From NCBI RefSeq assembly GCF_003852535.1, contig NZ_QAJP01000004.1, forward strand, positions 1 to 64,000: a DNA stretch of 64,000 nucleotides, given 5' to 3'. Position numbers and translations under genes: made by a program. Source of the DNA: Herminiimonas sp. KBW02 (GTDB lineage: Bacteria > Pseudomonadota > Gammaproteobacteria > Burkholderiales > Burkholderiaceae_D). Under the pieces are notes generated by a model, which worked only from the letters and a program-made list of their open reading frames with translations, was not told where the DNA came from and ran no database searches. This document shows, piece by piece, positions 24,732 to 55,571 of this stretch (position 1 is the first letter of the stretch; each line of letters begins with the position of its first letter).

Positions 24732-24742
24732 AGCCTGCCTGC

Positions 24743-28242: not shown

Positions 28243-29623
28243 TGGATTCTCTTGAAATATCAGGATGTAACGCCCCTAGGCTTAAGGCGCACACATTAGG
28301 GTCATCAACCCGCTCAATAGCTGGAAGAAAGCTAGCTTGCCAGGGCAATCGTGCCAAATCACCGGTCTGGCCTTTTAAGGTTCGAGATTGATGGTCGCCG
28401 AGCAAAGGCAATAATTGCATGCGATAGGCCGCCTGAGAAAAACGGCCGCCGAGCACAACTTGCTGCAATGGCAAAGGCTCTGCCATTTCACCTTCCGGCA
28501 ACGCACCTAACCGGGTCAGTTGATCGATTAACTCATTCAATTCAGCTGGCATGCTGAGAACCTCTATCTCGCCCGCTGCAGCTTGCGCGGGAGGTGGGAG
28601 TCCTTCGGAACGTCTTGGATTTGGTCTGTCGCGCTCAAATTCTCCCTCGGCTACGTCCACTAATTCATGACCGCTTACAAAGATCGGCTGAACACCGATA
28701 GAAAGTGCGTCACCGAGTAATGTCGGCAAAAAAGGATAGGTTTGCAGCCATTGGCGTACGTCGGAGCTGGTAACGCCGGTACTACCCAGCGTTACTCGCT
28801 GACGGTCAGCCTGTTGTAGCGCGCGCGTGAACTGGCTGGCCATGGATAGCAAACGTGCTTGTCCATTGCCTAAGGCACGCGCTTCACGCTCCAAGCGTGC
28901 ATCGTCGTGTTCGCTACGGATTAATGCGGTAAGCGCTTCGCCGGCACGTCCGACTAATTTCAGGGCACGCTCAAAGCGCGGCTGTGCTTCACGTAATCTG
29001 GCTTCGGAACCACTAGCGATGGCGTCGGCGAATTCATCATACAAGCGAGCCAATTGCGCATGCAGATGCCGAATCTGGCTAGCATCCGAAAGACCCATGG
29101 CTTGTGCGCCCGCTACCTGCGCCAGAAGGGAAGCCATCTCATCATCTTCGCTGCTTGCCCTAGTCAGTGGAGCCAGGAGCGCTTGTACCTGTAACGCAAG
29201 TGAGGATAAATAGTAATCCTGTGCGGTTGCATCCCAGACTAGTAAAGTTAATTCCCGCAGTCGCTTAAGGACGGCGTCCAATACTTCGGGTTTGAGATTG
29301 TAGAAAAGTTGGTTGAGATCGTCTCGGAGCAATCGCCCCTTAGGCTGCGCAGCAAGTTCGAGAAACACCCATATGCGCAGGCGAGCCGCAGCATGCCCGC
29401 CCGACAACAAGCCGCGCAAGGCATCTAGTACGTCCAAATGCTGGTTTAATCCCCAAGCCAGCATGGATTCTGTCGCTAAGCTGGGATCACGAAAATACCC
29501 ATCGAAGGAGTCGAATTCTTGTTCATCAACCTGGAGCGGTTGATTCAGTTCTTCAGCCAATTTGGTTTTTCTATTAAATTGAACGCATACATCATACCGG
29601 AACGATTGCATCATTAATAACAC
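28235..29623 (-). CDS. jetA: Wadjet JetA, kleisin-like subunit
   Basis: This 462-residue protein is the first gene of the Wadjet operon and fits JetA, the MukF-like kleisin that bridges the JetC heads. The N-terminal part resembles a winged helix (LLRDDLNQLFYNLKPEVLDAVLKRLRELTLLVW). A helical middle is rich in Arg, Glu and Ala. The GTG at 29623 has AGGA 6 bases upstream and is preferred to the ATG at 29614 or 29611. Its identity rests mainly on gene order, length and secondary-structure pattern. Confidence 0.8.
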   Translation of the reverse strand: MLLMMQSFRYDVCVQFNRKTKLAEELNQPLQVDEQEFDSFDGYFRDPSLATESMLAWGLNQHLDVLDALRGLLSGGHAAARLRIWVFLELAAQPKGRLLRDDLNQLFYNLKPEVLDAVLKRLRELTLLVWDATAQDYYLSSLALQVQALLAPLTRASSEDDEMASLLAQVAGAQAMGLSDASQIRHLHAQLARLYDEFADAIASGSEARLREAQPRFERALKLVGRAGEALTALIRSEHDDARLEREARALGNGQARLLSMASQFTRALQQADRQRVTLGSTGVTSSDVRQWLQTYPFLPTLLGDALSIGVQPIFVSGHELVDVAEGEFERDRPNPRRSEGLPPPAQAAAGEIEVLSMPAELNELIDQLTRLGALPEGEMAEPLPLQQVVLGGRFSQAAYRMQLLPLLGDHQSRTLKGQTGDLARLPWQASFLPAIERVDDPNVCALSLGALHPDISRESNE

Positions 29624-39403: not shown

Positions 39404-40579
39404 ATGCCAATTAGATTTAGAAAGTCAATTAAGCTTGCTCCTGGTATTCGCATGAATTTCAGTAGCAAGGGGGCTAGTTGGACAATCGGTCCTCGTGGCG
39501 CTTCTTTAGGTATTGGACAACGCGGCACCTACTTAAACACAGGTATAGCGGGATTTTCATCGCGCCAAAAGCTAGCAGGAAGCAGGGGTAACCATAACCA
39601 TGGTTCTAACACCAAGGTATCGATTGCTATCACTGTCGAAGTAAACGACTTAGGAGAAATTCTCTTCAAAGATGAGAATGGGATTCTGCTGACTGAGGAT
39701 GTAATAAAAGTTGCGAAAAAACAGAACGGTGATGTAATCCGCGAGCTTATCCAAAGAAAATGTGATCAGATTAACAGTCAAGTTGAGGCTTTAAGCGAGA
39801 TCCATCTGTATACCCCAGAATCGACACGGATCCCATCTTATGAGCCACTGCAGTACGGAGAGAGTCAGCCAGTCAAACCTCTTCCAATAAAACCCAACTT
39901 TTTTAATCGTTGGTTCAAAAAAACGATTGCAAGAATCGAAGCACAGAATGCAAAAACTCAGTTGAAATATGAAGACGATCTTTCTAAGTGGACTAGTGAT
40001 CGACTTGAATTCGATACAGCGCAACGTAATAAGCAGGATTTAATTGCTAAGGTAATCCAGGGCGATACTCTATCAATGGAAATATTTTTGGAAGAGGTTT
40101 TGCAAGATATTGTCTGGCCTAGGGAAACGACTCTTTCTTTTGATATCTTGGAAGAAGGAAAAAAAGTTGTCGTTGATGTTGATCTACCTGAGATTGAAGA
40201 CATGCCCGATAAGGTAGCAAGTGTTCCACAGCGTGGTTATCGCTTATCGGTCAAAGAGATCAGTGCTACACAAGTTCAGAAAAACTATATGCGTCATGTG
40301 CATGCAGTCGGTTTTCGAATTATTGGAGAGATCTTTGCTGCGCTTCCAACGGTTAATCTGGTCTTGTTATCAGGGTACTCCCAAAGGGCAAGTATTCGAA
40401 CGGGGGAAATAGAAGATGAGTACTTGTATTCTGTAAAAGTACGTAGGGAAGAGTGGGGTCGTATTCAGTTTGCGAATTTGACTCATATTGAAGTTGGGGA
40501 ATCTCTATCTCAGTTCGAACTTAAACGTAGTATGAGTAAGACGGGAGTATTTAAAGCTATTAAACCTATAGAGGAATGA
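39404..40579 (+). CDS. DUF4236 N-terminal domain protein
   Basis: This 391-residue protein has a DUF4236 domain at its N-terminus: RFRKSIKLAPGIRMNFSSKG and GASLGIGQRGTYLNTGI. The rest contains basic and coiled-coil segments near residues 160-220 and a beta-rich C-terminus. DUF4236 proteins are small beta domains of unknown role, often with extra domains. It lies between the glycine-zipper and zinc-ribbon genes. No strong ribosome binding site precedes the ATG. Confidence 0.78.
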   Translation: MPIRFRKSIKLAPGIRMNFSSKGASWTIGPRGASLGIGQRGTYLNTGIAGFSSRQKLAGSRGNHNHGSNTKVSIAITVEVNDLGEILFKDENGILLTEDVIKVAKKQNGDVIRELIQRKCDQINSQVEALSEIHLYTPESTRIPSYEPLQYGESQPVKPLPIKPNFFNRWFKKTIARIEAQNAKTQLKYEDDLSKWTSDRLEFDTAQRNKQDLIAKVIQGDTLSMEIFLEEVLQDIVWPRETTLSFDILEEGKKVVVDVDLPEIEDMPDKVASVPQRGYRLSVKEISATQVQKNYMRHVHAVGFRIIGEIFAALPTVNLVLLSGYSQRASIRTGEIEDEYLYSVKVRREEWGRIQFANLTHIEVGESLSQFELKRSMSKTGVFKAIKPIEE

Positions 40580-41353: not shown

Positions 41354-42709
41354 TCAGGTTTTTTTTGCCAGATCAAAATTCTTTATTTCTTGTAGATTGC
41401 TTTGCAGTGTTCCGGCCACTACTTTTAAAGGCACAACTCCTACACCCAGAGCACGTTCAATAGCAAGATTGTCACCGCGGTCCGCAAGTAATCCCTGCAA
41501 CTTTGAAAATTCTCCGCACCAAATAGTCTCAACGTCCTTATCTCGACTGATATCTCTGTCGGCCTCTAACGCCACGGCCCTTACCTGTAAACGGCCATTC
41601 TGAGCATTTCCTCCAATTTCGACGCCATAGCCAGGTAGCGCGGCTTTTTTTGCGACAACTCGACCATCTGTAGCCCAAGCAGTTTCCATTCCTTCGCTGA
41701 TTTCGTAGCCTAGCTGCGCCAGCCCTTGTAGGATAACCTGGCGCCGCGCCTCTGCTTCCTTGCGTTGCCGAGCCTGGGCAATTAATGTTCTGCATTCATC
41801 TGTGAGTTCAGTTATCGCCTGTAAAGACATCAATGGCTTACAAGCTTCAATGCGTTCGAGTAGTGTTGTTGTAGTTAGATCATGGGCCTGCAGTTCTGCG
41901 ACAAGCGCTCTCAATTCAGTCATAGTGGACCGATATGTTCGGGCGCTCTCCAGATCGGCGGCCAAGTCTAAAATTAAGCTATCCAAGATGAGGTTTTGTT
42001 TTGAACTGACTTCCATCTTCTCAACTTTGCTCAATCTTTCAATATAGTTTGCTGTTCGATCGCTGCCCAAAAGCATCTCGAGTTCAGCAATCTGTTGATC
42101 AATGCGCGCTATTCTTGGGTTCTGGGTAAGGGGAACATGCGTTGCTTTCCAAGTCGTGAAATCTTGTTTCTCTAATCCAACCATGAGAGCTTCTGCTGCT
42201 GTACGCTGTGCTTCAGACAAGTCTTTGCTGCTAAAGGGCGTCGTAAGTAATGAAAATCCGCGCGCAAGGATGGTGTCCATATTGGGGGCGGCTTTGCCAG
42301 CAGCTAGCGTTCTTAGTTCTTCATATAGTTTTGTCGGAATGGCAATATCTCGAGCCTCAAGCATCTGTATTAACGTTGAGGCACTATCTCGCCCATGGCG
42401 ATGGCGTTTTCGCTCTTGTACTGCTTTTTCGGAGGCTATTCGATGGCGTCGATCAAGATCAGCGGTTAGAAACGCAATTTCATCAGGAACTTTCTTTTGT
42501 AAATCCATGAATGCGTCTTGTTTTAACAGGATATCAAAAGCCTTTCTGCGATGCAGCGTCGTAGCGATTTCTTCATCAGTTAGTTCCTTAATCCTTTTGC
42601 CATCGTTGCTCCACATTGCAATGGTCTGGTCTAGGCGACGCAGATGTCCCTCACAGATAGAAATTATTTCTTCGCGAGTAACAATACGTACAACTTTGGG
42701 GCCGCTCAT
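41354..42709 (-). CDS. Coiled-coil protein coupled to the kinase-helicase gene
   Basis: This 451-residue protein is mainly helical and charged, with several coiled-coil segments through about residue 340, then a compact C-terminal region (GYGVEIGGNAQNGRLQVRAV followed by DVETIWCGEFSKLQGLL) that may be a small alpha-beta domain. It begins MSGPKVVRIVTREE. Its ATG at 42709 overlaps the stop of the 2095-residue gene in ATGA, so the two are probably translated together and may act in one complex. I do not recognise a family. A frame extension to 42895 lies inside the upstream gene and is rejected as the start. Confidence 0.8.
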   Translation of the reverse strand: MSGPKVVRIVTREEIISICEGHLRRLDQTIAMWSNDGKRIKELTDEEIATTLHRRKAFDILLKQDAFMDLQKKVPDEIAFLTADLDRRHRIASEKAVQERKRHRHGRDSASTLIQMLEARDIAIPTKLYEELRTLAAGKAAPNMDTILARGFSLLTTPFSSKDLSEAQRTAAEALMVGLEKQDFTTWKATHVPLTQNPRIARIDQQIAELEMLLGSDRTANYIERLSKVEKMEVSSKQNLILDSLILDLAADLESARTYRSTMTELRALVAELQAHDLTTTTLLERIEACKPLMSLQAITELTDECRTLIAQARQRKEAEARRQVILQGLAQLGYEISEGMETAWATDGRVVAKKAALPGYGVEIGGNAQNGRLQVRAVALEADRDISRDKDVETIWCGEFSKLQGLLADRGDNLAIERALGVGVVPLKVVAGTLQSNLQEIKNFDLAKKT

Positions 42710-45700
42710 GTTAGTTCCTTCTGAAGAGCTGATTCGATAGCTGATTTCAAGCGCTCTTTTTCGGACGAATTTTCGTGATACCAAGCTTGCGATGAGATAC
42801 GATGGAGACGAGGGATTGCACGGCTCAAGACAGAAGGACGCCAGATATCTCGCGCTCGCGCGCGGTGTAATAACTCGTGGCGCGGTGCATCGCACTCAAT
42901 ACCAATGGCATAAAGACCTGTGTGTGAGTCTGCAATAGCAAAGTCTAGACTGAAGGCGTCGCCTTCCTGTGCGACTACTGGATTGAAACCAATCGAGTGT
43001 AAATATGAGAGAACATCCGTAGCAAAGCCATCCAATTTTTTTCCTTGTTCCAAGCGTGCATTTACCCGTTCACTATGCATTCGTTTTAACAAAGAGAGGG
43101 CAGATGGAAGATCGCCGTTTGACATGGTGCGAGCATATTCCATATAGCCTTGCAGATAATCTCTAGGAATAGCTGGCTTACGTTGGGTGCTAAGCATGTC
43201 CGATATTTCATGGATTGGCATTGAGGTTACCAAAACGACCTTTTGGCGTGCTCGAGTTACTGCTACATTTAGCCGTCGTTCTCCACCTTTCTGTCCTAAT
43301 ACGCCGAAGAAGCGTTTGAATGCACCTTGACCATTGCGACCAAAGGTCGTAGAGAATACGATTACATCACGTTCGTCACCTTGTACATTCTCCACATTCT
43401 TTACGAAGACGGCCATATCCTCACCGCCGTCGCTTCTCATAGATTCTTCCTGATAAGCGGTACGGAATGCAGGATTCTCTTCAGCAAATAACTCCAATTT
43501 TTCTTCAATTAGCTCGGCTTGCTTTAGGTTGAAAGTCACTACACCCACGGATGGGCGATCCATATATGGCTTTTTCCAGAGATCCGCCAAGTAAGCTACT
43601 ACACGGTCTGCCTCTTCAGCATTAGTTTGCTTATCGTACAACCCGTTGACTTGGATCATTTCGATAGGTTTGATCTCTTGGATCGTGGCATCAGGATGTC
43701 GTGCTGGAACGTTTAGATTGTTCTCGTAAAATGCTGCATTCGAATAGCCTATTAATTCACGATAAACTGACCGGTAGTGAATTTGAAGTGTTGTTATGGG
43801 AAGCGCTGTTCTTGCCAACTGTAGGAGATCAGGACAATCCTTAATTTCGCGACGATTCCATGTTTCTTCAAACTGCTCTTTTTCTTCTTCGCTAGCATCG
43901 TCATTGGGTTGTTCGCCATCGAAAAGCTCAGCCTCGTCGTTATCAGTGCGACCAGAGAAGAAGGAGCTAGGTGGCATTTGCTTTTCATCGCCACTGACTA
44001 TTGCAACATTGCCGCGAAAGAGCGTAGGTAACGCATATTCAACAGGCATCTGTGAAGCTTCATCATATACAATTGAATCAAATAGGCCAGTTTTTAGTGG
44101 GAGTACACGGCTAGCAACGTCTGGATTCATAAGCCAGATCGGACGTAAAGCCATTAAACCCATACTGGCGCCTGATTCAATGAATTCACGTAGGCGCCGC
44201 GACCGCTGCCCTCGCAGTCTGGTGACATCTTCCCATTGTTTTGCCGTTGCAATATTGTTGCGATCAATACCCTCTCGTAGCACATCACGATTGAGCCTCC
44301 GCATTTCTTCATCAGCCGTAGCTAACGATTGGACCTTGGCGACTGTTTCCGTCTGTTCTAACAGAAGTTCGGGATTATTCTGTTCCATTCGGCGCTTCCA
44401 GCCCAAACGGGCTTCACGATTGACAATGCGGCGGACTTCGCCATCAAGTGATTCTAGCGGGACGTTATTAAAAAGGAATTCATTGTGCCGCATTGTCGCA
44501 AAGACTTCGAGCGTATCTTTGCTCAAGTTTTGGGAGCGTGTACGGAATTGCTGATAGGCCGCTAATGTGGGTAGTGCATCGTGAATTCGATTGAGAACGG
44601 TACGATCTTCGAGGTTGTGCTGGATAGACTGATGACATTGATCTATCAGGTCTGTGGAGAACCAGTCATGTAGTAGAGCCAGATTTTTCAAGCTTAATTG
44701 ACGAGCGGCGTATCGTATAAAGGCGCGCTCGAAGCCGTCTAGGAGTTGCTCAACGGGAGCACGGTCTCCTGTCATGACAGCTTCTTCAAATTCGTCGCAG
44801 CGGGGAGCAACTGCTAAATGCTGCGCTAATTCTCGGACTTCTTCAAGTTTGCGAAGACGAGTTAGGCATTCATCGGCTAATGTTGGACCGCAGGCGGCCG
44901 TGACTTTCTCCATCAGTAATGTCTCCGCTATTGTATTAAGCTTCTGACGAAGGGGACGCCACTGCTGTTCCAGAAGTGCTGCTGCGAGTAGCTTATTGAT
45001 GGAATCTACTTCAACGGTGGAGCCGGTGCGAATAATGAACTTCAATAATTTTTTTCGGCGAATATACGTAGCAGGATTCAAACGACTAAGGAATGTAGCC
45101 GGACGCACGGCCAGTGTGGCTTGTTTTATACGCTCTATTAGCTCAAGGTTAGTTGTTTGAGCTAGTGACGTCGACATGGCATCGTTATACCCAATGCTAT
45201 TGATGGATATTAATTCATGACGCAGACCTTGGAGCGCTGCGTAATGAAGATGGCCAGGAGTATCCTTCCTGTCGGAAGGACGGAATAGCGGAAGCCATTG
45301 TGCAAGCCGCTTACGTTGAGTCTCATCCAAACCAGCCAATCGAGCTGCATTTTGCTTAAGCCAAGTACGATAGGGTTCTGGATCATCAACATCGAATCGC
45401 GCAGGGTGCTCATTCAGTACCTGAATACGATGTTGTTCCGCATCTAGAAAGGCTATAAAAACGACTTTAAATTCATCAATAGTTGCCGAGTCGGCGGAAA
45501 ATGACTTCAATTGCGCTAAAGCACTGCCTTCAAATTTAGCGGGAAGCCAGTAACGTGCCAAGGGAGAACATTGTTCTTCAACAGTGGTAAGGGATGCAGG
45601 GTCTAACGATGAAAGTTTGCTTCTCAACTGCGGCATGTTTAAAGGTGGCGTACCGGCTTCCAGTTGGATTAACTCACCTAATAGGGTGCGATAGCTCAAG

Positions 45701-48700
45701 CCAGTTGCTTGATCTACGTTGTGAAGTGCGCGATGCAATCGATCTAATTCGCCTTCCAGTGCTTCAATTTTGGCTGCGACACGCTCACGTTGTTTTGACC
45801 AACCGTTGTCAAACGACGAGCCTTTAAAAATACTATCTAGTTGTTCTCGTATCGTGCGAATTGTAGGTTCACGGTCCTTATTGACATCGTTGACCATGAT
45901 GATTCGGTCACCTAATCCTTCGGCAACTAGGCGCTTGTATACGACTTCCAGTGCTGCGTGCTTTTGACAGACAATGAGCAAACTTTTTTTGTGGCCAATG
46001 GCATCCGCGACCATATTGACGATGGTTTGGCTCTTACCTGTTCCAGGTGGCCCCTCTACCAAAAGACCTGGACCTTGACGTGCCTTTAGTATGGCTGACT
46101 CTTGAGACGGATCGCTAGCTACTGTCAGGTAGCGGTCTATTTCTGCCACTGATGGCACTGGCGCCTCATATTGCGCTTTTTCCTTCAAGCGCAACATAGA
46201 TTCCAATGCGGTGCCAGAGGGTGATAGAACCTTTAGTTGTCTCAGATCTTCGCCTATAGCTTGGCCGCTAAAAGTTACATGAAACAAAACAGCGGAACAA
46301 ACTAGTTGAGTGGTCCCGGGCGGAATCTCGTAAGTTGGTGGTGGTAGCACCCTAAGTTGGCGCTGTTCGACTGGTGCCAGTAGACCAAATGCGTCCATAA
46401 CATCGGCGATTTTCAGTGTTGAACGTCCCAACACTTCGTCGGCTGCAGCACGCCAAGTTTTAACCGTCTCGCGGCCAAGCAAACCCTCCAAGGCAGGATT
46501 AATTCTGATCTCCTCGCGTTCCGAATCAAAAGCCAATGAAATTTGGGATCGAGTCCCCAGTTCCATGAGCAATTTAATTGGCCATAGTAATACTGGAGCG
46601 ATTCTTGGACGAACTTTGGCGCGACTGTCCTTTATAGCTAAAAACGGAAAACCCATATACAGGCCATCGATACCAGTATCTCGTTTATAGACTGACGTTT
46701 GACGATACAACGCGTGAAGTCGCGATTCCAAACCGAGATGGTCAGCAAAGAGTGCTGGATCTAATTGAACTGATTGAGAATTACGCTGCAGCAGATGGTC
46801 TAGCAACATAGGCCCATTATGGCGCGAACTATTCATTTCCATAAGATCGGCCCGACCTACAGATTTACCGATAGTCATTCGTACTAATGGTCCACGCATG
46901 ACTGAGGAAGATACTTTCTTCTCAAAAAAATCAAGAAGATGAGATACGTATTGCTGTTTCTGTGGCTCAAGCCATTGATCTACTGGAATGGCTAATAGGA
47001 GTATGGCTTCATGCAGCGACAAGCGACGCTCAAGGCGGAACTGTTCTGCCAAATCATCAATTAGCCTTTTCCCAGTACGTGCAAAGCCGGCAATTCGATC
47101 ATCGACTTTCCGAAATAGTTCGGCACGACTTAACGCTAAAGTAGATCGTGCGGTTTCCTTATCAAAACTAAGGATATTTTCTCTGTCTGCTATTTGCTTG
47201 GCCTCATTCAATATTGTTTCAACCGAACGAAATTGAGAAATAGCTGCACTCAACAAGACTATTAGATCCTCTTCACTGATCGTCCTTTTCTCTGATAAAG
47301 ACAATAGCCCAGGATGATTAGAGTCGGGCAAAAGTTGTCGAGTTTGTTCCCACATGGCCGCTAGTCGTGCACGCGATGTAGAAAGAAGAAAAATACGGAC
47401 ATTTTCTTCGCTCAGTTCAATACTTAAACTGGCAGCGCGCTGTCGAACAAGCGCAGCACGCGAGCTCAATCCAGAAATCCATTGTTCAGTTCCCAGTCGT
47501 TCCAAAAAAGAAGGTACAGGGCCAGTAATGAGATCGTAGGCTTCTAGTGCATTCTGCAGCAGCCATCCGGGATTAACGATTTCTCCGCGCAAAATTAACG
47601 GAAGTTCCGGATTGAGAAGCTTTAAGGCAATCATTAAGCGACAGTCGTCATCAATTTCAATCTGCTGCATCAGCTGTCGTAGGCCCGTTATTGCCTTGCT
47701 AGATAAGCCGGCTTGTTCTGCCCAAGTAATCAGTACACCGCGACTAAGGAGATCTTTTGCCTCGTTCCAGTGCTCTTTCTCTGCTGCCTTTAAGGCAAAA
47801 ATGGGCGGCTTACGGAATCGTTGGGAGCCAAGAGAAATGCTGTTGCCTTCTTCACTATCGACATCTACTTCTCTTATTGTGGGGGCTTGTATATCCTTAC
47901 CATCTAGCCACGCTTGTACTTGCGGCCATTGCCAACGTTCATGACGGTCACGTGCTAGTAGACCGCGCAACAGCAAATGAATTTGCGGATCTAAATCGGA
48001 TGGGAGTGGCACACCATTGGTGACAACGTGAATCAGAAAGGCGTGAAGATTGGTCTCCTTAAAGCACGCACCATTGGTGAGCTTCTCGAGCAAAATCATA
48101 CCTAAGCTCCACCAATCTGAGGCCGCGGCGACACCTCCGGCAACTGTTTCCGGAGCCATGTAACGGGTCGTTTCGAGTGGTGCGACAATATCCAGATCGA
48201 ATTCAGCTAAACGTGCTGACCCGAATCCGCCAATAACAAGGTCTAATGGAGTGCGGTTCCGAACAAATAGTGTCTCAGGACGGAGATCTCGATGACGCAG
48301 TCCTGCTTCCGAGAAGGAGTTTAAGATTTTTCCGAGCTCGGAAACGACATTTCGGATAGTACTTAGGTTACTGAACTCGATGTCTATGTTGGCAAAAGAA
48401 CCTTGGCTTAATTCTTCAGTCACTTCATAGGCTCGCCCATCCCATCGCCCTGTAGTAATTATCTCGGGAACATGTTCTTTGGGGAGATAGGCAACGACTT
48501 CATATACCGCCGGATCAGGTTCTGCGCCGGGGCGATATAACGTCAGAACGGCACTTCTATTTGTATCAATATGCTGGCAAACATAGCGTTCGCGTACGCT
48601 ATCTGCATTGGAAATGCGTTTCAGTAATCGCCAGCCATCGATTTGCGTTTCTTCTGCAGTTGCTTGTTCTTCAGAGTCTTCTCCCGGCGCTGTCGCATCT

Positions 48701-48993
48701 TGTTCTAGCTCAGGTGGAATAACAGAACTTGGATCTGCACCGCAATCCAAGCACATTAAGTCACCCTGATTCATCAGATGGCCGTTTGCGCAACGTAAGA
48801 TGGACGATGCGGATAAAATCCTTTGTCGCTGTTCTTTGTCTTCTTCCGTTACTAGTTCTTGTGGACGATATCCATTCTCCCTAATTGCGATTGCAGATAG
48901 CTCCCAGTTACAAGGTGCATTATCAACAATACCTTCGCAGAACCATTCCTGGACGGATCGTTCGGTTTTGCAATTTGGACAAAAACGCATCAT
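42706..48993 (-). CDS. Zinc-ribbon/kinase-fold/SF1 helicase/MTES_1575-type nuclease fusion
   Basis: This 2095-residue multidomain protein has N-terminal zinc ribbons (CPNC near residue 5; CANGH and CLDC at 68-84), a kinase-like domain (about 120-350), a long linker, an SF1 helicase, and a C-terminal nuclease. The helicase has Walker A EGPPGTGKSQTI near 980, DEASQ near 1640 and RRLNVAVTRARQK near 1908. The nuclease fits the REase_MTES_1575/Vsr group with SLDFAIAD and GIECDAPRH near 2030. The kinase keeps HRD (234-236) and APE (280-282) but has Thr151 in place of the usual Lys, Thr241 for the catalytic-loop Asn and Gly256 for Asp of DFG. It is probably a pseudokinase. DNA remodelling with cleavage is inferred. 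Confidence 0.88.
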   Translation of the reverse strand: MMRFCPNCKTERSVQEWFCEGIVDNAPCNWELSAIAIRENGYRPQELVTEEDKEQRQRILSASSILRCANGHLMNQGDLMCLDCGADPSSVIPPELEQDATAPGEDSEEQATAEETQIDGWRLLKRISNADSVRERYVCQHIDTNRSAVLTLYRPGAEPDPAVYEVVAYLPKEHVPEIITTGRWDGRAYEVTEELSQGSFANIDIEFSNLSTIRNVVSELGKILNSFSEAGLRHRDLRPETLFVRNRTPLDLVIGGFGSARLAEFDLDIVAPLETTRYMAPETVAGGVAAASDWWSLGMILLEKLTNGACFKETNLHAFLIHVVTNGVPLPSDLDPQIHLLLRGLLARDRHERWQWPQVQAWLDGKDIQAPTIREVDVDSEEGNSISLGSQRFRKPPIFALKAAEKEHWNEAKDLLSRGVLITWAEQAGLSSKAITGLRQLMQQIEIDDDCRLMIALKLLNPELPLILRGEIVNPGWLLQNALEAYDLITGPVPSFLERLGTEQWISGLSSRAALVRQRAASLSIELSEENVRIFLLSTSRARLAAMWEQTRQLLPDSNHPGLLSLSEKRTISEEDLIVLLSAAISQFRSVETILNEAKQIADRENILSFDKETARSTLALSRAELFRKVDDRIAGFARTGKRLIDDLAEQFRLERRLSLHEAILLLAIPVDQWLEPQKQQYVSHLLDFFEKKVSSSVMRGPLVRMTIGKSVGRADLMEMNSSRHNGPMLLDHLLQRNSQSVQLDPALFADHLGLESRLHALYRQTSVYKRDTGIDGLYMGFPFLAIKDSRAKVRPRIAPVLLWPIKLLMELGTRSQISLAFDSEREEIRINPALEGLLGRETVKTWRAAADEVLGRSTLKIADVMDAFGLLAPVEQRQLRVLPPPTYEIPPGTTQLVCSAVLFHVTFSGQAIGEDLRQLKVLSPSGTALESMLRLKEKAQYEAPVPSVAEIDRYLTVASDPSQESAILKARQGPGLLVEGPPGTGKSQTIVNMVADAIGHKKSLLIVCQKHAALEVVYKRLVAEGLGDRIIMVNDVNKDREPTIRTIREQLDSIFKGSSFDNGWSKQRERVAAKIEALEGELDRLHRALHNVDQATGLSYRTLLGELIQLEAGTPPLNMPQLRSKLSSLDPASLTTVEEQCSPLARYWLPAKFEGSALAQLKSFSADSATIDEFKVVFIAFLDAEQHRIQVLNEHPARFDVDDPEPYRTWLKQNAARLAGLDETQRKRLAQWLPLFRPSDRKDTPGHLHYAALQGLRHELISINSIGYNDAMSTSLAQTTNLELIERIKQATLAVRPATFLSRLNPATYIRRKKLLKFIIRTGSTVEVDSINKLLAAALLEQQWRPLRQKLNTIAETLLMEKVTAACGPTLADECLTRLRKLEEVRELAQHLAVAPRCDEFEEAVMTGDRAPVEQLLDGFERAFIRYAARQLSLKNLALLHDWFSTDLIDQCHQSIQHNLEDRTVLNRIHDALPTLAAYQQFRTRSQNLSKDTLEVFATMRHNEFLFNNVPLESLDGEVRRIVNREARLGWKRRMEQNNPELLLEQTETVAKVQSLATADEEMRRLNRDVLREGIDRNNIATAKQWEDVTRLRGQRSRRLREFIESGASMGLMALRPIWLMNPDVASRVLPLKTGLFDSIVYDEASQMPVEYALPTLFRGNVAIVSGDEKQMPPSSFFSGRTDNDEAELFDGEQPNDDASEEEKEQFEETWNRREIKDCPDLLQLARTALPITTLQIHYRSVYRELIGYSNAAFYENNLNVPARHPDATIQEIKPIEMIQVNGLYDKQTNAEEADRVVAYLADLWKKPYMDRPSVGVVTFNLKQAELIEEKLELFAEENPAFRTAYQEESMRSDGGEDMAVFVKNVENVQGDERDVIVFSTTFGRNGQGAFKRFFGVLGQKGGERRLNVAVTRARQKVVLVTSMPIHEISDMLSTQRKPAIPRDYLQGYMEYARTMSNGDLPSALSLLKRMHSERVNARLEQGKKLDGFATDVLSYLHSIGFNPVVAQEGDAFSLDFAIADSHTGLYAIGIECDAPRHELLHRARARDIWRPSVLSRAIPRLHRISSQAWYHENSSEKERLKSAIESALQKELT

Positions 48994-49023
48994 GTCTACT
49001 AATCCTCTATTTTTTCTGTATTA

Positions 49024-49665
49024 CTAATCGCTCGTCTTATCGGCACTAATCAGTATCTGGTGTCCCTGATCTGTTAAGAGCTCTTTTAGGCGATGGAAAT
49101 CACCTCGTTGAGGTATGCCGGCAAACCAAATGCTGCCGTCCTGATCGAACATGACATCTAACGATTTGTCGCTGTCAGCTAGCGGTCGTTCATACTGACT
49201 AAATCGGTCACGTCCCAACATTGTTAGAAGATGCAAGCTTTGATTATCACTACCTCTAAGTGGTAGTGAGTTTGCGGTATGGAGTTCAAACGGATCAGAT
49301 ATCAAGGCATCGATTAGGCCTGCTGCTTTTTCTAATATCGGTGCGATGTGTTCAAAGGTATGGCCACTGTAGACGAGAATGTCTATTGCGGTACGGCGAC
49401 GTAGACTTTGCAGTAATTTGAGCAGTGCCTCGGCCTGATCAAACGGTTCGCCGCCGGAAATAGTGATGCCGTTCGCAGAGGAAATCCAAGGAGCTATATG
49501 TTCAAGAACAGTTTCAACGGTTGTTTCGCCGGTATTTGTGGCCCAAGTATCGGCTGAGATACAACCGGGACAATGGATGCTACACCCTTGAAGCCAAATG
49601 CCAATGCGCTGACCTGGTCCTAACGTGGTGACCGGGAAGTGAAGGCGAGAAATTCGTATGTTCAT
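49024..49665 (-). CDS. Radical-SAM protein of the NrdG-like activase type
   Basis: This 213-residue protein has the radical-SAM cluster motif GCSIHCPGC (Cys-x3-Cys-x2-Cys), then ITISGGEPFDQAEALLKLL, as in NrdG and other activating enzymes. It binds a 4Fe-4S cluster and SAM. Typical NrdG activates a glycyl-radical ribonucleotide reductase, but no such partner lies here. Its ATG is three bases after the AAA+ stop, and the kinase-helicase gene starts 30 bases after its stop, so it belongs to this operon. It might modify a protein or nucleic acid in the system, as inference. Confidence 0.85.
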   Translation of the reverse strand: MNIRISRLHFPVTTLGPGQRIGIWLQGCSIHCPGCISADTWATNTGETTVETVLEHIAPWISSANGITISGGEPFDQAEALLKLLQSLRRRTAIDILVYSGHTFEHIAPILEKAAGLIDALISDPFELHTANSLPLRGSDNQSLHLLTMLGRDRFSQYERPLADSDKSLDVMFDQDGSIWFAGIPQRGDFHRLKELLTDQGHQILISADKTSD

Positions 49666-49668
49666 GAA

Positions 49669-51513
49669 CTACAGCTTGTGCAACTGTAGTGCGTCGGAGT
49701 CGTATCCACTCAAAGTAAATCGATCCTCTGCTTGCGCATTTTGGTCAAACAATCCTCGCGCTAGTGGATTGATGAGATGTGCCTCAATTTGATTGCGAAT
49801 ACCACGGCCGCCGTTTGATAAATCACTCAAGCATCGCTTTTTTAGTATTGACATAAAAGTCTCTTGGATCTCAATCGAAATGCCTTGTGCTGAGATATCG
49901 TCCAAAATAGCTCGGACCATTTGGTCAAAAATTTGTTCGGCAACATCTTGGCGAATGAAGTCAAAGACAATGATATTTTCGCCGATTCGGTTAAGGATTT
50001 CGGGCCGATTTAGTATTAGCTTGAAGTGATCCTGGATTTCACTTAATACCTTTTCCTGTACATGTTCAAAAGGTTCGCCAGGTAGTACGTTCGGTACTCG
50101 TTTCCCCAGATCTCCTTGGCGATAGATGCCTAGATTTGAAGTGAAAATGATTAATGCTTCGGAAAAGTAGACGCGATCTCCTCTCCCGGAGGTTAATACG
50201 CCATCGTCTAGAATTTGTAGAAATTTGTCTAAGATACGCGGATGGGCTTTCTCGATTTCGTCGAACAGAACTACGCTAAATGGCTTTTCGCGGATGGCAT
50301 TAGTGAGTTCTCCACCAACGTCGTAACCTACATATCCGGGCGGTGCACCAATTAGACGTTGATCTGCGTGTTCTGCGCTGAATTCCGACATGTCGAAACG
50401 AATGTAAGCACTTTCGTCACCGAATAATAGGCTGGTAATGGTCTTGGCTAGCTCGGTTTTCCCGACTCCAGTGGGACCTGCGAGAAACGCTACTCCGCGT
50501 GGGCGCCCTCCCTTACGCTGCGATCCTAATCCAGTCATCGCACGTTTAACAAGATCCAGCATATGGGTAACTGCATGTGCTTGGCCTTTGACACGTTTGC
50601 GAATTTCTACTTCTGCATTCTGAATCTTATTACGTTCAATCTGAAGCCAGGGGTCTTCAGTAACGCCAACTTTATAACGACGAACTGCATCAGCAATCTT
50701 CTCAATGCCTACGTTTTCTACTCGGGCTAGCGTCGCAATAGCATTCATATCTGAAAGGAAGAGACCTTCCGTACCATCGACGAAAGCACGCTCGGCCTCA
50801 GCATAAGCTTCAGTAGAGGCGTTTTGGAAGCCAGGGACTCCGCGAAGGAGCGCGTTGGATAGCGCACGGCGTGCAAGATTATCGGGTTTTGAGATGGGGA
50901 TATGGCGAATCCGCGGGTTGTCGATTAGAAGCCAATCTGGAACATCTCCTTCCTTGTCGACGATCCAAATAACCGTATTAAAGAATGGACGTCGTTGTTC
51001 TCCGTGAGGGCGAGGTTGAGCTGCGTGACCTAGTACTATTGCGCGTGTAAAAAGGTTATGTTCCGCCGCATTAAGTGATTCAGTGCGGACCGTCAAGCGA
51101 GAAGCAAAATCGATGATTAAAGCCATCGGTGCCTCAGCAAATGAGACTATACGTTCTAAGGTAGTGCTGAGTATATCTATTCCACCTGGGGCAACACCAT
51201 TGCTAGGTGTTAAACCTAGGCTATTCAAAATAGTATCGCGCGATTCTTGGCTGTCAGTACGGGCATTGACAGAGAAGCCTATTAATGGATTCCAAACCAC
51301 CAGTTGTGTATACCCAATCTCTCTTAAACCATCGCATAAAGTGTCGGTTAAAGGTTGTGCTGTCACAATTCCTGGGGCCACTTCACATGCTTGTAAGTCG
51401 CGAACGTTTCCGGATAGTACAAACTGACTTTTTAAGGGGGCAAAGCGAATTAGGTCGCGTAGCCAGCGTGCCTTGACGAATTCCGGCTGTTGTTTGCTTT
51501 GATTGTTGTTCAT
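49669..51513 (-). CDS. ClpB/ClpA-like AAA+ ATPase
   Basis: This 614-residue protein has an N-terminal degenerate AAA-like module (about 20-300), which lacks a Walker A, and a canonical Clp-type D2 module: Walker A AGPTGVGKTELAK near 346, pore loop GYVGYDVGG near 393, Walker B VLFDEIEKAHP near 414, sensor 1 IIFTSN, Arg finger in NRPEILNRI and sensor 2 GGRGIRNQIE. It has no ClpN repeat and no visible ClpP-binding loop. It probably remodels or unfolds proteins by threading. It is the first gene of the four-gene operon. A disaggregase or unfoldase serving the downstream nuclease is inferred. Confidence 0.87.
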   Translation of the reverse strand: MNNNQSKQQPEFVKARWLRDLIRFAPLKSQFVLSGNVRDLQACEVAPGIVTAQPLTDTLCDGLREIGYTQLVVWNPLIGFSVNARTDSQESRDTILNSLGLTPSNGVAPGGIDILSTTLERIVSFAEAPMALIIDFASRLTVRTESLNAAEHNLFTRAIVLGHAAQPRPHGEQRRPFFNTVIWIVDKEGDVPDWLLIDNPRIRHIPISKPDNLARRALSNALLRGVPGFQNASTEAYAEAERAFVDGTEGLFLSDMNAIATLARVENVGIEKIADAVRRYKVGVTEDPWLQIERNKIQNAEVEIRKRVKGQAHAVTHMLDLVKRAMTGLGSQRKGGRPRGVAFLAGPTGVGKTELAKTITSLLFGDESAYIRFDMSEFSAEHADQRLIGAPPGYVGYDVGGELTNAIREKPFSVVLFDEIEKAHPRILDKFLQILDDGVLTSGRGDRVYFSEALIIFTSNLGIYRQGDLGKRVPNVLPGEPFEHVQEKVLSEIQDHFKLILNRPEILNRIGENIIVFDFIRQDVAEQIFDQMVRAILDDISAQGISIEIQETFMSILKKRCLSDLSNGGRGIRNQIEAHLINPLARGLFDQNAQAEDRFTLSGYDSDALQLHKL

Positions 51514-51748: not shown

Positions 51749-52594
51749 TTACGTTCCTCTTATTCTAAGTTTGTCGAGTTCTTTGCCGAACCACGCTCGA
51801 TCGCAGTCGGCCCCTGTATCTATGGAAATTATTCCTCCACCGGCGATTGCTGTTCGGAAGTCGAATGCCATGTGGAGGCTTGGCGGGAGTTCTATGGCCT
51901 TGCCGTTCAAGGAGAGTCTACCCATGCCGATTGCGCTGAGTGAGACACGCAACTCGTGCTCGGCACGAAAGCGTTCGGCTTTAAGGTAGCTATAGAGAAT
52001 CGGGTTTGGGAGCTGCTGGCTGTTGAGCCTGTGTTGGTCAGTGTCCACATAATCGACGACTCCATAATTGATCGAGAAAATTTGTCGTAAAGGAACATCG
52101 TTTAGCATCAGTCCGCTTGTGCCCGGCATCAGCTGCGCATTGAGGTGCTGTCGTAGCCAAGTGAAATCGAAGACAACAGCAACACGTCCGTGATCGCTAC
52201 CAGAGCCATAATGCTGCCAGATATGTGCGTTGTTCTCGAGTGCGAAGCAGCAAGCATAAGTTCGAGCCCGACTTTGGTCGTAATAATGTTCCGCAGTAAA
52301 GGTCGGTGCCTTTTCGAAGCCGATGGTTGCATTTAACACCCGATCAGCGGGAAGCTGCGCACCGTCTAGTGCGTCGGCTTTATCGAAATCGCGATAGCTA
52401 TCGACGCGATTGAAGTGCAGATACGAATTAGCGATGGAGTTTATTAGATGCTCAGCCCGCATGACCTTGTATAGCGGCTGGCCATCCACCGGCTGTCGCA
52501 GTAAGGTCGCATGTGGCTCGATAAACCCTCTCGGAGCGGGAGTTGACGTGAGCGAGACTCTATCGGATATCTTGAGATGGGCATCTTTGTTCAT
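51749..52594 (-). CDS. DUF2971-family protein
   Basis: This 281-residue protein matches the DUF2971 family: LYKVMRAEHLINSIANSYLHF at the N-terminus, followed by FNRVDSYRDFDKADAL and a central CCFALENNAHIWQHYG. The function of DUF2971 is unknown, though such genes are common in accessory and defence-rich regions. It is 235 bases upstream of the AAA+ gene on the same strand and may or may not be cotranscribed. The start is the ATG at 52594. Confidence 0.8.
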   Translation of the reverse strand: MNKDAHLKISDRVSLTSTPAPRGFIEPHATLLRQPVDGQPLYKVMRAEHLINSIANSYLHFNRVDSYRDFDKADALDGAQLPADRVLNATIGFEKAPTFTAEHYYDQSRARTYACCFALENNAHIWQHYGSGSDHGRVAVVFDFTWLRQHLNAQLMPGTSGLMLNDVPLRQIFSINYGVVDYVDTDQHRLNSQQLPNPILYSYLKAERFRAEHELRVSLSAIGMGRLSLNGKAIELPPSLHMAFDFRTAIAGGGIISIDTGADCDRAWFGKELDKLRIRGT

Positions 52595-52839
52595 TTTTTT
52601 GTGTGCACGTGTATTAGGTGGAATGTACCCCGAAACTCAGTAACGGATGTTTCCGGCTTGACTGCAATTCTGGTAATCAGCTGCCTCGAATTGTGTACAC
52701 CATCAGCTTGCGCAACACGGATTGCAGGAGGCGAAATAATCTTCGCCAGCGAGTCATTTCGCCTGGTTACGGGAGACGGATCACATTCCAGCTAGACGTG
52801 GACAGCCAACGTCATATTTAACGAGCTATCCATTCCCTG

Positions 52840-53601
52840 TTAAAAGGGGAGTTCACGCCACTTTAAACCTTCTCGGTGCCGAGCTAGATACTTTTTAATC
52901 CCATTAGGCACACTGCGAAGTTGTATATCCTGGCGCAGACCCAAGAGCATCGCATCGTTCAGGTCGAGACTGAGACTGACTAGCAGGCGTCCCTTATCTG
53001 TAAATGAAATCATTTTGCGGTCAAAAAGCTTATCTAGATTTGGACTTAGAAGCAGGCCATTATCGGGATCAAGGCGCTCGTTATTGTTCTCGCAGGTGCG
53101 CCAAGATACTATGTGCGACGCAATTAACGCGGTCTGAGGACCGCAGCCTAGGGCACTGCAAGTTTTCCATCGCGTCAGAAGTTTTTTCCTAAATTCTCCT
53201 TGACCAACACGGGCCAGTAAGAGCTGCTCTCTCTCTGTACTACCGACAGAGCCGATGATCTCTTCCGCAGCTTCGTCTGAAATGTGGTCGGTAAAAGCAT
53301 GTTGATTGGAATTCTGTGGAGTGCCGACGGCCTGCGGATGAAGTGATGATGTTCCGCAGTATTGTTTGTAGGCTAGGGGACATCCAGGGTGCGCCGGACG
53401 ATGTTCGAAGTGAGCCTCGTTCCGTCCATTTTGGCTCTCCCTCATCAAAATTATAGGGCCATGACACTCGTAGCACCTTACTAACGCGGTTTTGCGGTGT
53501 GGATAAGCGGCCGAAACGGGCCAAATTTCCCATTGCGTCCCAGTCCATATTGCGCAACGCTTCTTGTTTTTGGGTCGAACCAGCGTATTTTCAACTTTCA
53601 T
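52840..53601 (-). CDS. HNH endonuclease with N-terminal zinc-finger-like region
   Basis: This 253-residue protein has a C-terminal HNH nuclease domain: IASHIVSWRTCENNNERLD, then NGLLLSPNLDKLFD, with catalytic His and Asn. The N-terminal region contains VRCYECHGPIILM and FEHRPAHPGCP, resembling the Cys/His cluster seen in CoiA-like proteins. Such HNH proteins are frequent on mobile elements as restriction or anti-phage nucleases. Its target is unknown. It lies between DUF2971 and the integrase. Confidence 0.82.
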   Translation of the reverse strand: MKVENTLVRPKNKKRCAIWTGTQWEIWPVSAAYPHRKTALVRCYECHGPIILMRESQNGRNEAHFEHRPAHPGCPLAYKQYCGTSSLHPQAVGTPQNSNQHAFTDHISDEAAEEIIGSVGSTEREQLLLARVGQGEFRKKLLTRWKTCSALGCGPQTALIASHIVSWRTCENNNERLDPDNGLLLSPNLDKLFDRKMISFTDKGRLLVSLSLDLNDAMLLGLRQDIQLRSVPNGIKKYLARHREGLKWRELPF

Positions 53602-53833: not shown

Positions 53834-55045
53834 CTATGCTGCTTTGATCGAAACGATGGTTGAATTTTCTTCTAGTTTGTCCAAAAAATCAGCCCATGCT
53901 TGCATCATTCTCCGGCGTTCTGGTAAATGTTCAGCATAGTTGTAGGCCGCACGAACAGAATTCCTTTCTGCATGCGCTAATTGCCGTTCAATGGCATCCC
54001 GATGCCAACCTTGCTCATTTAGTAGTGTACTAGCCATGCTTCTAAAGCCATGACCCGTCATTTGATCATTTGTATATCCCAAGCGGCGAAGGCCCGCATT
54101 AACTGTGTTTTCACTCATTGGTCGGCCATTAGTTCTTGCGCCAGGGAAGACGTAACGGCCATTGCCTGTCAGAGGCTGGAGTTCGCGCAAAACTATAATG
54201 GCTTGTGTGGAAAGCGGAACAATATGCAATTCCCCCATTTTCATTCGTTCTGCAGGGATGCGCCATTCTAGAGTTTCAAAGTTGAACTCACTCCATTCCG
54301 CCTTTCGTAGTTCGCCAGGCCGGACAAAGAAAAGGGGCGCTAGTTGCAAAGCGCATTTTGTTATCAGAGTTCCTTGATACCCCTTAATTGCCCGAAGTAG
54401 CTCACCGATGGCCTTGGGCTCAATAATTGATGAGTGGTGTTTGACTTTACTTGGAGGAATGGCACCTCGTAAGGCAATAGTAGGGTCTCGTTCTGTTCGG
54501 CCGGTCGCAATTGCATAACGAAAAATTTGGCCGCAATTTTGTAGGGCGCGATGAGCAGTCTCAGTAGCGCCCCGATTCTCTACTCTGCGGAGTGCCATTA
54601 AAAGCTCAGGAGCCTTAATTTCTGAAATGGGAGATTTTCCAATCCATGGAAAGATATCTCTTTCCAGTCTGCGGATAATTTTCTCGGAATGGTTTTGTGC
54701 CCAGCTCGGCGCAAACTTGCCAAACCATTCCCTAGCGATCATCTCGAAAGTATTTTCGCTATTTTCTTGAAGTGCAGCTTTTTGAGCCTTTTTATTCTCT
54801 CCAGGATCTATATCGGTGGCCAATAGTTTGCGCGCTTGATCTCGCTGCTCTCGAGCTTCACTTAGGGTGATTTCTGGATAAGTGCCAAACGTGAGAAGTT
54901 TCTCCTTACCCCCAAATCGGTACTTTAGTCTCCACGATTTACCCCCACTCGGCGCAATGTGTAGAAATAGGCCGCCTCCATCAAACAACTTAATAGGCTT
55001 CTCGCCAGGTTTGGTATTTTTAACGGAAATGTTGGTTAAAGGCAT
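53834..55045 (-). CDS. int: P4-type tyrosine recombinase (integrase)
   Basis: This 403-residue integrase has an N-terminal DUF4102 arm-binding domain (NTKPGEKPIKLFDGGGLFLHI), then a core domain, and the catalytic Arg-His-Arg-Tyr set: FVRPGELRKAEW, HGFRSMAST and the final Tyr in AYNYAEHLPER. It probably integrated the element next to the 3' end of ssrA, 165 bases away, and excises it with AlpA help, by analogy to CP4-57. All motifs are intact. Its orientation toward the element and away from ssrA is the usual one. Confidence 0.93.
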   Translation of the reverse strand: MPLTNISVKNTKPGEKPIKLFDGGGLFLHIAPSGGKSWRLKYRFGGKEKLLTFGTYPEITLSEAREQRDQARKLLATDIDPGENKKAQKAALQENSENTFEMIAREWFGKFAPSWAQNHSEKIIRRLERDIFPWIGKSPISEIKAPELLMALRRVENRGATETAHRALQNCGQIFRYAIATGRTERDPTIALRGAIPPSKVKHHSSIIEPKAIGELLRAIKGYQGTLITKCALQLAPLFFVRPGELRKAEWSEFNFETLEWRIPAERMKMGELHIVPLSTQAIIVLRELQPLTGNGRYVFPGARTNGRPMSENTVNAGLRRLGYTNDQMTGHGFRSMASTLLNEQGWHRDAIERQLAHAERNSVRAAYNYAEHLPERRRMMQAWADFLDKLEENSTIVSIKAA

Positions 55046-55210: not shown

Positions 55211-55571
55211 TGGTGGAGGCGGCGGGAATCGAACCCGCGTCCAGAAGCACTCTACAGACAGTTCTACATACTTAGTGCTGCCATTTGATTTAACCCGTAC
55301 GACGCGGACGCACACGCTGCGGACAGGCGAGTCACCTATTGTTTAACGTCTTGCCAAGTGACCCGGCACGACGCGATTCCTTGTATATGACTTCACTGCT
55401 GTTGCCAGCCCGCCCCAAGGAAGAAACGGTGTGAAGCTAACCGGTATTAAGCGGCTAGTGCGTACGAGTTATCGTTTGCAGTTATTACTTTTCTGGTTGT
55501 ATTTACGAGGTGACCAGTCCTCGGTATGCCCTGCGCTGCTTTGCAACCCCTGTCGAAACCAGGTCGCCCCC
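55211..55571 (-). ncRNA. ssrA: Transfer-messenger RNA
   Basis: The 361-base tmRNA rescues stalled ribosomes by adding a degradation tag. The 5' end GGGGGCG at 55571 pairs with CGCCTCC at the 3' end, forming the acceptor stem, and the tRNA-like T arm GGTTCGATTCC and encoded CCA are at 55211. The internal reading frame gives the tag ANDNSYALAA followed by TAA; the resume codon is GCA. The gene is intact and borders the integrase, so it is the probable insertion site of the element. Standard form, as in betaproteobacteria. Confidence 0.95.

What the first reader, a model, noticed from the sequence alone, without database searches (positions are those of the whole stretch)
41354..51513. Four-gene operon: Clp-like ATPase, radical-SAM protein, kinase-fold/helicase/nuclease giant and coiled-coil protein
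The genes lie on one strand with spacings of 3 and 30 bases and an ATGA overlap, so they act together. Each domain is recognisable, but I do not know this combination as a named system. A protein-unfolding ring, a SAM-radical enzyme and a 2095-residue DNA or RNA remodelling nuclease within an integrase-flanked element suggests an undescribed defence or conflict system.
Basis: partly seen in the sequence, partly recalled or inferred. Interest (0 to 1): 0.88.

Follow-up and report, generated by a model that had tools for sequence, protein, structure and literature searches.

The report
Undescribed conserved four-gene helicase-nuclease system
Four bacterial genes (a protein-unfolding ring, a radical-chemistry enzyme, a giant DNA/RNA motor-nuclease with a dead kinase domain, and a coiled-coil partner) travel together in related bacteria, and three of the four also recur with other partner enzymes, which points to an undescribed and probably defensive machine.

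Summary
The operon is real. All four genes occur in the same order and strand in 76 of the 80 loci kept from a genome scan (the 80 best of at least 444 relatives). Spacings are tight, and no flanking gene family is shared by more than four genera. Ten paper searches and the PADLOC and NCBIfam scans gave no named system with this set. In P. aeruginosa three of the genes appear to be the core right-flank markers of defence hotspot cDHS1 (PMC10250203), with no function assigned in the passages I read.

The kinase in the giant is a conserved pseudokinase: ATP Lys lost in 78 of 78 rows, DFG Asp in 78 of 78. Distant relatives show a modular triad, Clp-type ATPase + NrdG-like radical-SAM enzyme + coiled-coil protein, partnered by an active kinase, an MkoA-like helicase with a PIN-type protein, or a ProA-like helicase with kinases, FHA and PP2C. 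The window type looks like a fusion of such a kinase, since inactivated, with a helicase-nuclease.

Best reading: a gated nucleic-acid-degrading effector controlled by the triad, probably against phages or mobile DNA. The defence role is inferred; neighbourhood evidence is modest.

The parts
49669..51513 (-). AAA+ ATPase, 614 aa: N-terminal domain (aa 1-330) plus Clp/ClpB-D2-type ATPase
   Evidence: Pfam AAA_2 2.2e-45, ClpB_D2-small; Walker A, Walker B, sensor 1, pore loop GYVGY/GYIGY, RPE..NR and GGRG motifs in 81 of 81 rows
50524..51513 (-). N-terminal domain of the ATPase, possibly a degenerate AAA domain
   Evidence: PDB profile search: ClpB/ClpC-type matches at aa 258-327 and a weak hit of aa 199-260 to VCP-like ATPase, E 0.36; the degenerate-AAA reading is inference
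49024..49665 (-). NrdG/PFL-activase-like radical SAM enzyme, 213 aa
   Evidence: Fer4_12 3.5e-27; TIGR02491 NrdG 88 bits against a cut-off of 126; CxxxCxxC and GGEP in 80 of 80 rows
42706..48993 (-). giant, 2095 aa: zinc ribbons, pseudokinase, DUF4011, SF1 helicase, MTES_1575 nuclease
48724..48993 (-). zinc-ribbon-like region of the giant (aa 1-90)
   Evidence: first CxxC in 78 of 78 ungapped rows; CPTC/CPSC near the start of the stand-alone kinases of L183, L186, L189, L190; no Pfam zinc-ribbon hit, so named from the Cys pattern
47899..48636 (-). pseudokinase domain (aa 120-365)
   Evidence: Pkinase 3.1e-16; catalytic Lys lost 78 of 78, DFG Asp lost 78 of 78; aligned with active homologues
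46483..46848 (-). DUF4011 (aa 716-837)
   Evidence: Pfam 1.8e-11
43219..46146 (-). SF1 helicase (AAA_11/AAA_12)
   Evidence: Walker A, Walker B, motif III and motif VI conserved
42736..43026 (-). REase_MTES_1575 nuclease (aa 1990-2086)
   Evidence: Pfam 1.8e-16; Asp of LDFAI and ECD motif conserved in the commonest forms listed
41354..42709 (-). coiled-coil protein, 451 aa, MSGPK start
   Evidence: ATGA overlap; AlphaFold2 mean pLDDT 90.7: short strand, long helices, C-terminal alpha/beta domain; no PDB fold match at E 0.001 or better
41420..41761 (-). conserved C-terminal alpha/beta domain of the coiled-coil protein, with Cys398
   Evidence: Cys398 in 76 of 76 ungapped rows of 78
53834..55045 (-). 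tyrosine integrase next to tmRNA (context, not part of the system)
   Evidence: Phage_integrase 1.8e-21; tmRNA 55211-55571

Best explanation
A regulated nucleic-acid-degrading conflict system, most likely against phages or mobile DNA. Shown by sequence: a Clp-type ATPase with its catalytic motifs and pore loop kept; a radical-SAM enzyme of the glycyl-radical-activase type with its cluster and GGEP motifs; a helicase and a restriction-type nuclease with their motifs kept; and a pseudokinase and zinc ribbons in front of the effector. Inferred steps: (1) ATPase, radical-SAM enzyme and coiled-coil protein form a sensing and gating complex, the coiled-coil protein being adaptor or substrate. (2) The radical-SAM enzyme modifies a protein of the complex, with the coiled-coil protein (invariant Cys398, conserved MSGPK end) the first candidate, to set its resting or armed state. 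(3) The pseudokinase and zinc ribbons dock the giant on this complex, a job that phosphorylation may do in relatives whose kinase is separate and active. (4) On a trigger the ATPase remodels the complex, and the freed helicase-nuclease unwinds and cuts nucleic acid.
For: Four-gene unit in 76 of 80 loci, median spacings -1, 12 and -4. Motif counts. ATPase, radical-SAM and a coiled-coil-type gene lie within the fetched piece in 15 of 22 more distant loci, with exchanged partners: active kinase, MkoA-like helicase + PIN-type gene, ProA-like helicase: the pattern of a fixed regulator with exchangeable effectors. The 14 pseudokinases sampled are one clade, 100/100 support. The host has no glycyl-radical enzyme by two models, Gly_radical and NRDD, and no second NrdG-like gene at E 0.001, so the radical-SAM enzyme most likely serves the operon. 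Effector relatives Hhe and ProA are named anti-phage proteins in NCBIfam. Patchy spread: the ATPase family is in 8 of 398 genomes of its phylum. Flanks: 19 PADLOC models at 1e-40 among 119 flank proteins, none among 110 controls. cDHS1 flank in P. aeruginosa.
Against: No functional test exists. Flank families are mostly metabolic, and 3 of 119 flank proteins are phage integrases. In P. aeruginosa the flank markers are present in every isolate, unusual for an accessory defence system. No substrate of the radical-SAM enzyme is known, and L066 lacks that gene. The window coiled-coil profile finds the partner in only 7 of 22 distant loci, at 30-56 bits, and does not reach the PIN type. No match in 50,697 phage records; none in E. 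coli genomes at DNA level (one Providencia query, which would miss divergent copies).
Confidence: 0.5

Rival explanations
1. A housekeeping or stress system (nucleic-acid or RNP repair, protein quality control), not defence: the helicase-nuclease processes the cell's own damaged DNA or RNA and the Clp-type ATPase clears stalled complexes.
For: Core in P. aeruginosa (PMC10250203); mostly metabolic flank families; largely order-wise grouping in the ATPase tree; kinase, FHA and PP2C partners in relatives resemble stress signalling.
Against: Patchy presence of the ATPase family (8 of 398 genomes of the phylum; 11 of 300 of the order); a plasmid copy near an integrase and ArdA; effectors related to Hhe, ProA and MkoA.
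Confidence: 0.25
2. The giant alone is the anti-phage effector, like Hhe or ProA; the ATPase and the radical-SAM enzyme only mature it or keep it folded and do no sensing.
For: Hhe and ProA are single large proteins that share the giant's helicase and nuclease part; L066 keeps ATPase, giant and coiled-coil gene without the radical-SAM gene.
Against: The triad also occurs with kinases and no helicase hit in the fetched piece (L032, L124, L183, L185, L186, L188-L190), so it is not a dedicated helicase maturase.
Confidence: 0.2
3. A module of mobile elements used against rival elements or to control their own transfer or upkeep.
For: Integrase by the tmRNA end here; 18 plasmid records carry the ATPase family.
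Against: No flanking gene family, mobile or other, recurs in more than four genera; no second attachment site found here; one viral contig only.
Confidence: 0.1

Closest known systems
Hhe (DUF4011-containing anti-phage protein)
   Same: NCBIfam NF042953 aligns at aa 1372-2078 of the giant (helicase C-part and nuclease), 318 bits; DUF4011 in both by name
   Different: Far below the cut-off of 2000; ours has zinc ribbons and a pseudokinase in front and three partner genes
ProA (NCBIfam NF058533 anti-phage protein) / PADLOC candidate PDC-S37
   Same: aa 753-2092 of the giant align, 505 bits; PDC-S37 2e-143
   Different: Below the cut-off of 1500; the partner genes are not part of either model. 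A ProA-like protein does sit by the triad on an Aristaeella plasmid (1020.9 bits for the 1879 aa of it given, still under the cut-off)
Mokosh type I (MkoA/MkoB)
   Same: SF1 helicase related (MkoA 5.6e-43); kinase domain + helicase is a Mokosh type I feature (recalled)
   Different: No PLD domain among the operon's Pfam hits; the best MkoA stretch lies in the helicase core
Dodola DolB and ClpB/ClpV
   Same: Clp-type AAA core (DolB 1.2e-20; ClpB model 266 bits of 1232 needed)
   Different: Different N-terminal part and different gene partners (Dodola's partner recalled)
MoxR-vWA 'ternary' chaperone-centred conflict systems (PMC7159879)
   Same: Theme: AAA+ chaperone plus co-chaperone gating variable effectors, with a radical-SAM domain in one subtype (passages read)
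   Different: Clp-type not MoxR-type ATPase, no vWA protein found, different third component

Membership tests
Hhe | whole-protein match above NCBIfam cut-off | tested here: not met
   318 of 2000 bits
ProA | whole-protein match above NCBIfam cut-off | tested here: not met
   505 of 1500 bits
Mokosh type I | helicase gene with kinase domain (recalled) | tested here: inconclusive
   a kinase-like domain is present but has lost catalytic residues; best MkoA stretch is in the helicase core
Mokosh type I | PLD-domain partner gene (recalled) | tested here: not met
   no PLD domain among Pfam hits of the seven proteins scanned
NrdG (class III RNR activase) | CxxxCxxC cluster motif and activase-type family match | tested here: met
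   80 of 80 rows; Fer4_12
NrdG (class III RNR activase) | above the NrdG equivalog cut-off, class III RNR partner present | tested here: not met
   88 of 126 bits; no NRDD match in the genome and no Gly_radical match; both models ring in control genomes
ClpB disaggregase | equivalog cut-off over the whole tandem protein | tested here: not met
   only the D2-type part matches, 266 of 1232 bits
Anti-phage defence system | protects cells against phage | not testable with these tools
   needs plaque assays
Anti-phage defence system | enriched among other defence genes | tested here: inconclusive
   19 models, each hit by one of 119 flank proteins, against 0 of 110 controls; most flank families listed are metabolic
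MoxR-vWA ternary systems | MoxR ATPase and vWA protein | tested here: not met
   Pfam hits of the operon proteins

The most novel reading that the evidence does not exclude
A new class of immune machine: a widespread triad (Clp-type unfoldase + glycyl-radical-activase-like radical-SAM enzyme + coiled-coil adaptor) that uses radical chemistry on its own adaptor as the switch and drives interchangeable effectors (kinase cascades, helicase-PIN, helicase-nuclease). In the window type the signalling kinase has been fused to the effector and has died, turning a phosphorylation step into a physical tether.
Probability: 0.3. Interest if true: 0.88.

Novelty: new variant of a known kind. Interest (0 to 1): 0.72.

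Why it matters
If right, a conserved gene set that borders a known defence hotspot of Pseudomonas and occurs in many other bacteria has gone unnamed, and it would be the first case known to me of an activase-type radical-SAM enzyme coupled to a Clp-type ATPase and a nuclease effector. The living-kinase and dead-kinase types form a natural experiment on how a signalling step is replaced by a fusion. The radical-SAM substrate question becomes directly testable, because this host has no glycyl-radical enzyme that the two models detect.

Tried and rejected
Rejected: service to class III RNR or another glycyl-radical enzyme (no Gly_radical match; no NRDD match; no second NrdG-like gene). Filing under Hhe, ProA or Mokosh (cut-offs or partners not met). 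An active kinase (Lys and DFG Asp lost). A delimited tmRNA island (no second attachment copy). A fifth conserved gene (571 flank ORFs, no cluster in more than four genera; reach about 8.5 kb upstream and 1.7 kb downstream).

Led nowhere: fold search of the coiled-coil model (no match at E 0.001 or better; Chk1 KA1 domain at E 1.8 is a lead only). Distant coiled-coil proteins against the window profile by hhalign: L032 96.6% probability, L127 31%, the other nine under 5%; shuffled controls at most 0.6%. PDB search with the coiled-coil profile: none. A second structure job, for the ATPase N-terminus, was not accepted because the machine was busy. Prevalence within Pseudomonas could not be measured.

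In one search, 61 of 274 genomes matched, but only five matches (own included) exceed 100 bits; most others match over the ClpB-type stretch. Flank samples were 119 of 209 and 110 of 219 ORFs, after dropping ORFs under 150 aa, over 1400 aa, cut ones and system genes; in GC-rich genomes some of these ORFs are spurious. One search gives models, not proteins: 'about six proteins' is my grouping. In one search several coiled-coil profiles were built from the very loci listed (L032, L033, L124-L132), so those hits are by construction; independent ones are L183-L191 and the window profile's hit in L032. The ten kinase domains of the other types were judged active by reading the alignment. Whether the radical-SAM enzyme acts on the coiled-coil protein was not tested.
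Full report
OBSERVATION. The four genes lie on the minus strand as described, with gaps of 3 and 30 bases and an ATGA overlap; the last gene is better started at 42709 (451 aa). Pfam finds AAA_2 and ClpB_D2-small in the first, Fer4_12 in the second, Pkinase, DUF4011, AAA_11, AAA_12 and REase_MTES_1575 in the giant and nothing above cut-off in the last.

CONSERVATION OF THE UNIT. A genome scan with the C-terminal part of the ATPase family kept the best 80 of at least 444 relatives. By tblastn, 76 of 80 hold all four genes in the order ATPase, radical SAM, giant, coiled coil on one strand; the ATPase and giant are in 80, the radical-SAM gene in 79, the coiled-coil gene in 77. Of the four misses, L111 and L112 are cut by contig ends, L096 has a truncated giant and no coiled-coil gene, and L066 has about 117 bases and no radical-SAM gene between ATPase and giant. 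Median spacings are -1, 12 and -4. By record titles the hosts are mostly Pseudomonadota, with one Acidobacteria and one Parachlamydiales bin. In 73 rows with four near-complete proteins (window included) the distance matrices correlate at r 0.886 to 0.952; shared ancestry alone would give such values. Among 571 flanking ORFs no protein cluster reaches more than four genera, so the unit stands alone within the reach of the loci.

ACTIVE AND DEAD PARTS. Over the family, window included: ATPase Walker A, Walker B, pore loop, sensor 1 and arginine-finger region 81 of 81; radical-SAM CxxxCxxC 80 of 80; Cys398 of the coiled-coil protein 76 of 76 ungapped rows of 78; MSGPK start 67 of 78. Helicase motifs and the listed nuclease motifs are kept. 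The kinase has lost the ATP-binding Lys in 78 of 78 ungapped rows and the DFG Asp in 78 of 78, while the HRD-type Asp stays in 69 of 78: a conserved pseudokinase.

A WIDER FAMILY. More distant ATPases from whole genomes and plasmids sit with similar companions. Kinases with all catalytic residues (ten of ten domains, from nine loci, read in the alignment) accompany ATPase, radical-SAM and coiled-coil genes in L032, L124, L183, L185, L186, L188, L189 and L190, with WD40 repeats or FHA in L032, FHA and FGE domains in L124 and PP2C in L185. An MkoA-like helicase and a PIN-type gene accompany them on plasmids of Moellerella, Photobacterium and Acinetobacter and in one genome of the window's order, L191; in L191 the PIN-type gene is recognised only weakly (about 18-24 bits, no Pfam hit). 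On an Aristaeella plasmid the set is a ProA-like DUF4011 helicase, two kinases, a coiled-coil-type protein starting MSGPK, FHA, radical SAM, ATPase and PP2C. In all, 15 of 22 distant loci show the triad within the fetched piece; in L131 the radical-SAM gene is 6.6 kb from the coiled-coil gene. Of the seven misses, L127 and L187 end at the contig, L035 begins with the ATPase, L125 and L126 are contigs of 10 and 8 kb, L034 has a split ATPase with no coiled-coil hit, and L033 shows ATPase and coiled coil without radical SAM in 20 kb. The window's coiled-coil profile finds the partner in seven loci at 30-56 bits, six with a kinase plus L184; the PIN-type protein is equivalent by position only.

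EVOLUTION. The ATPase tree groups the 80 window-type rows (window and 79 loci; L094, cut, was left out), with L032 next to them (quick method, long branches). In the kinase tree the 14 pseudokinases sampled form one clade with 100/100 support beside the ten active ones (drawn with a midpoint root). The simplest reading is one fusion of a zinc-ribbon kinase to a helicase-nuclease, followed by loss of kinase activity.

THE RADICAL-SAM ENZYME. It is nearest to activases of class III ribonucleotide reductase and pyruvate formate-lyase (NCBIfam 88 of 126 bits; PDB match 2e-9). The genome has no Gly_radical match, no NRDD match and no other such activase-like gene at E 0.001, so its substrate is probably in the operon. 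Cys398 and the MSGPK end are candidates; that is inference.

THE COILED-COIL PROTEIN. AlphaFold2 gives a confident model (mean pLDDT 90.7): short N-terminal strand, long helices and a C-terminal alpha/beta domain. Foldseek finds no significant match; a weak hit of about 100 columns to the KA1 domain of Chk1 (E 1.8) is noted without weight.

DEFENCE OR NOT. For: effector relatives Hhe and ProA are called anti-phage proteins. In P. [quoted passage not shown] that this is the operon is my inference, supported by the P. aeruginosa PA7 copy in L057. At 1e-40, 19 PADLOC models each hit one of 119 flank proteins (by my grouping about six proteins) and none hit 110 control proteins from the same 16 genomes. 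The window also holds a protein matching PDC-S06 at 1045 bits and a weakly Jet-like operon. Against: the flank families listed are mostly metabolic and three flank proteins are integrases (the control set was not scanned with Pfam); 50,697 phage records have no match, nor have E. coli genomes at DNA level.

SPREAD. The ATPase family is in 8 of 398 genomes of the phylum, four of them (own included) above 470 bits to the window-type profile, the same eight with a broader profile, and in 11 of 300 of the order. It is in 18 of 72,556 plasmid records.

LITERATURE. Ten searches of the held library gave no description of this gene set. PA2727 and PA2728, the DUF4011 gene by my recall, appear in mutation tables in the passages read (PMC4918941, PMC3697988); one more paper with PA2728 (PMC5870498) was seen in the listing only. 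Subscription papers and preprints are largely outside the library.

VERDICT. A real, conserved and apparently undescribed four-gene system, one type of a modular family built on the ATPase, radical-SAM enzyme and coiled-coil protein. The gated helicase-nuclease mechanism is inferred, the defence role likely but untested.

Noticed in passing
window 31086-33710 +: 874 aa protein matching the PADLOC single-gene candidate PDC-S06 at 1045 bits.
   Followed up: partly
window 23502-29623 -: Four-gene operon that looks like a divergent Wadjet (JetC-like 2e-20, JetD-like 3.5e-12; no hit for the two smaller genes).
   Followed up: partly
window 51749-53601 -: Two genes between integrase and operon: a protein with a DUF2971 match below cut-off and an HNH_2 nuclease with a DUF7830 match just below cut-off.
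   Followed up: no
window 39404-40579 +: Protein with an FRKSIK start near the coiled-coil end of the operon; a family with a similar start lies by the ATPase in L049, L083 and L088. The name DUF4236 is recalled, not searched.
   Followed up: no
L129 2478-12431, L130, L132, L191: Five-gene set of MkoA-like helicase, PIN-type protein, coiled-coil protein, Clp-type ATPase and radical-SAM enzyme, on plasmids and in one genome; it could be a system in its own right.
   Followed up: partly
L128 1-17047: Clostridial plasmid with ProA-like helicase, two kinases, FHA, radical SAM, Clp-type ATPase and PP2C in one run of genes.
   Followed up: partly
L182 7971-9857: One IMG/VR contig carries a close relative of the ATPase (55% over the N-terminus); the held piece ends after it.
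   Followed up: no
L053, L076-L078, L084, L089-L091, L099, L104: The ten Enterobacterales rows form one clade of the ATPase tree; nine coiled-coil rows of the family read MSS instead of MSGPK, among them L076.
   Followed up: no
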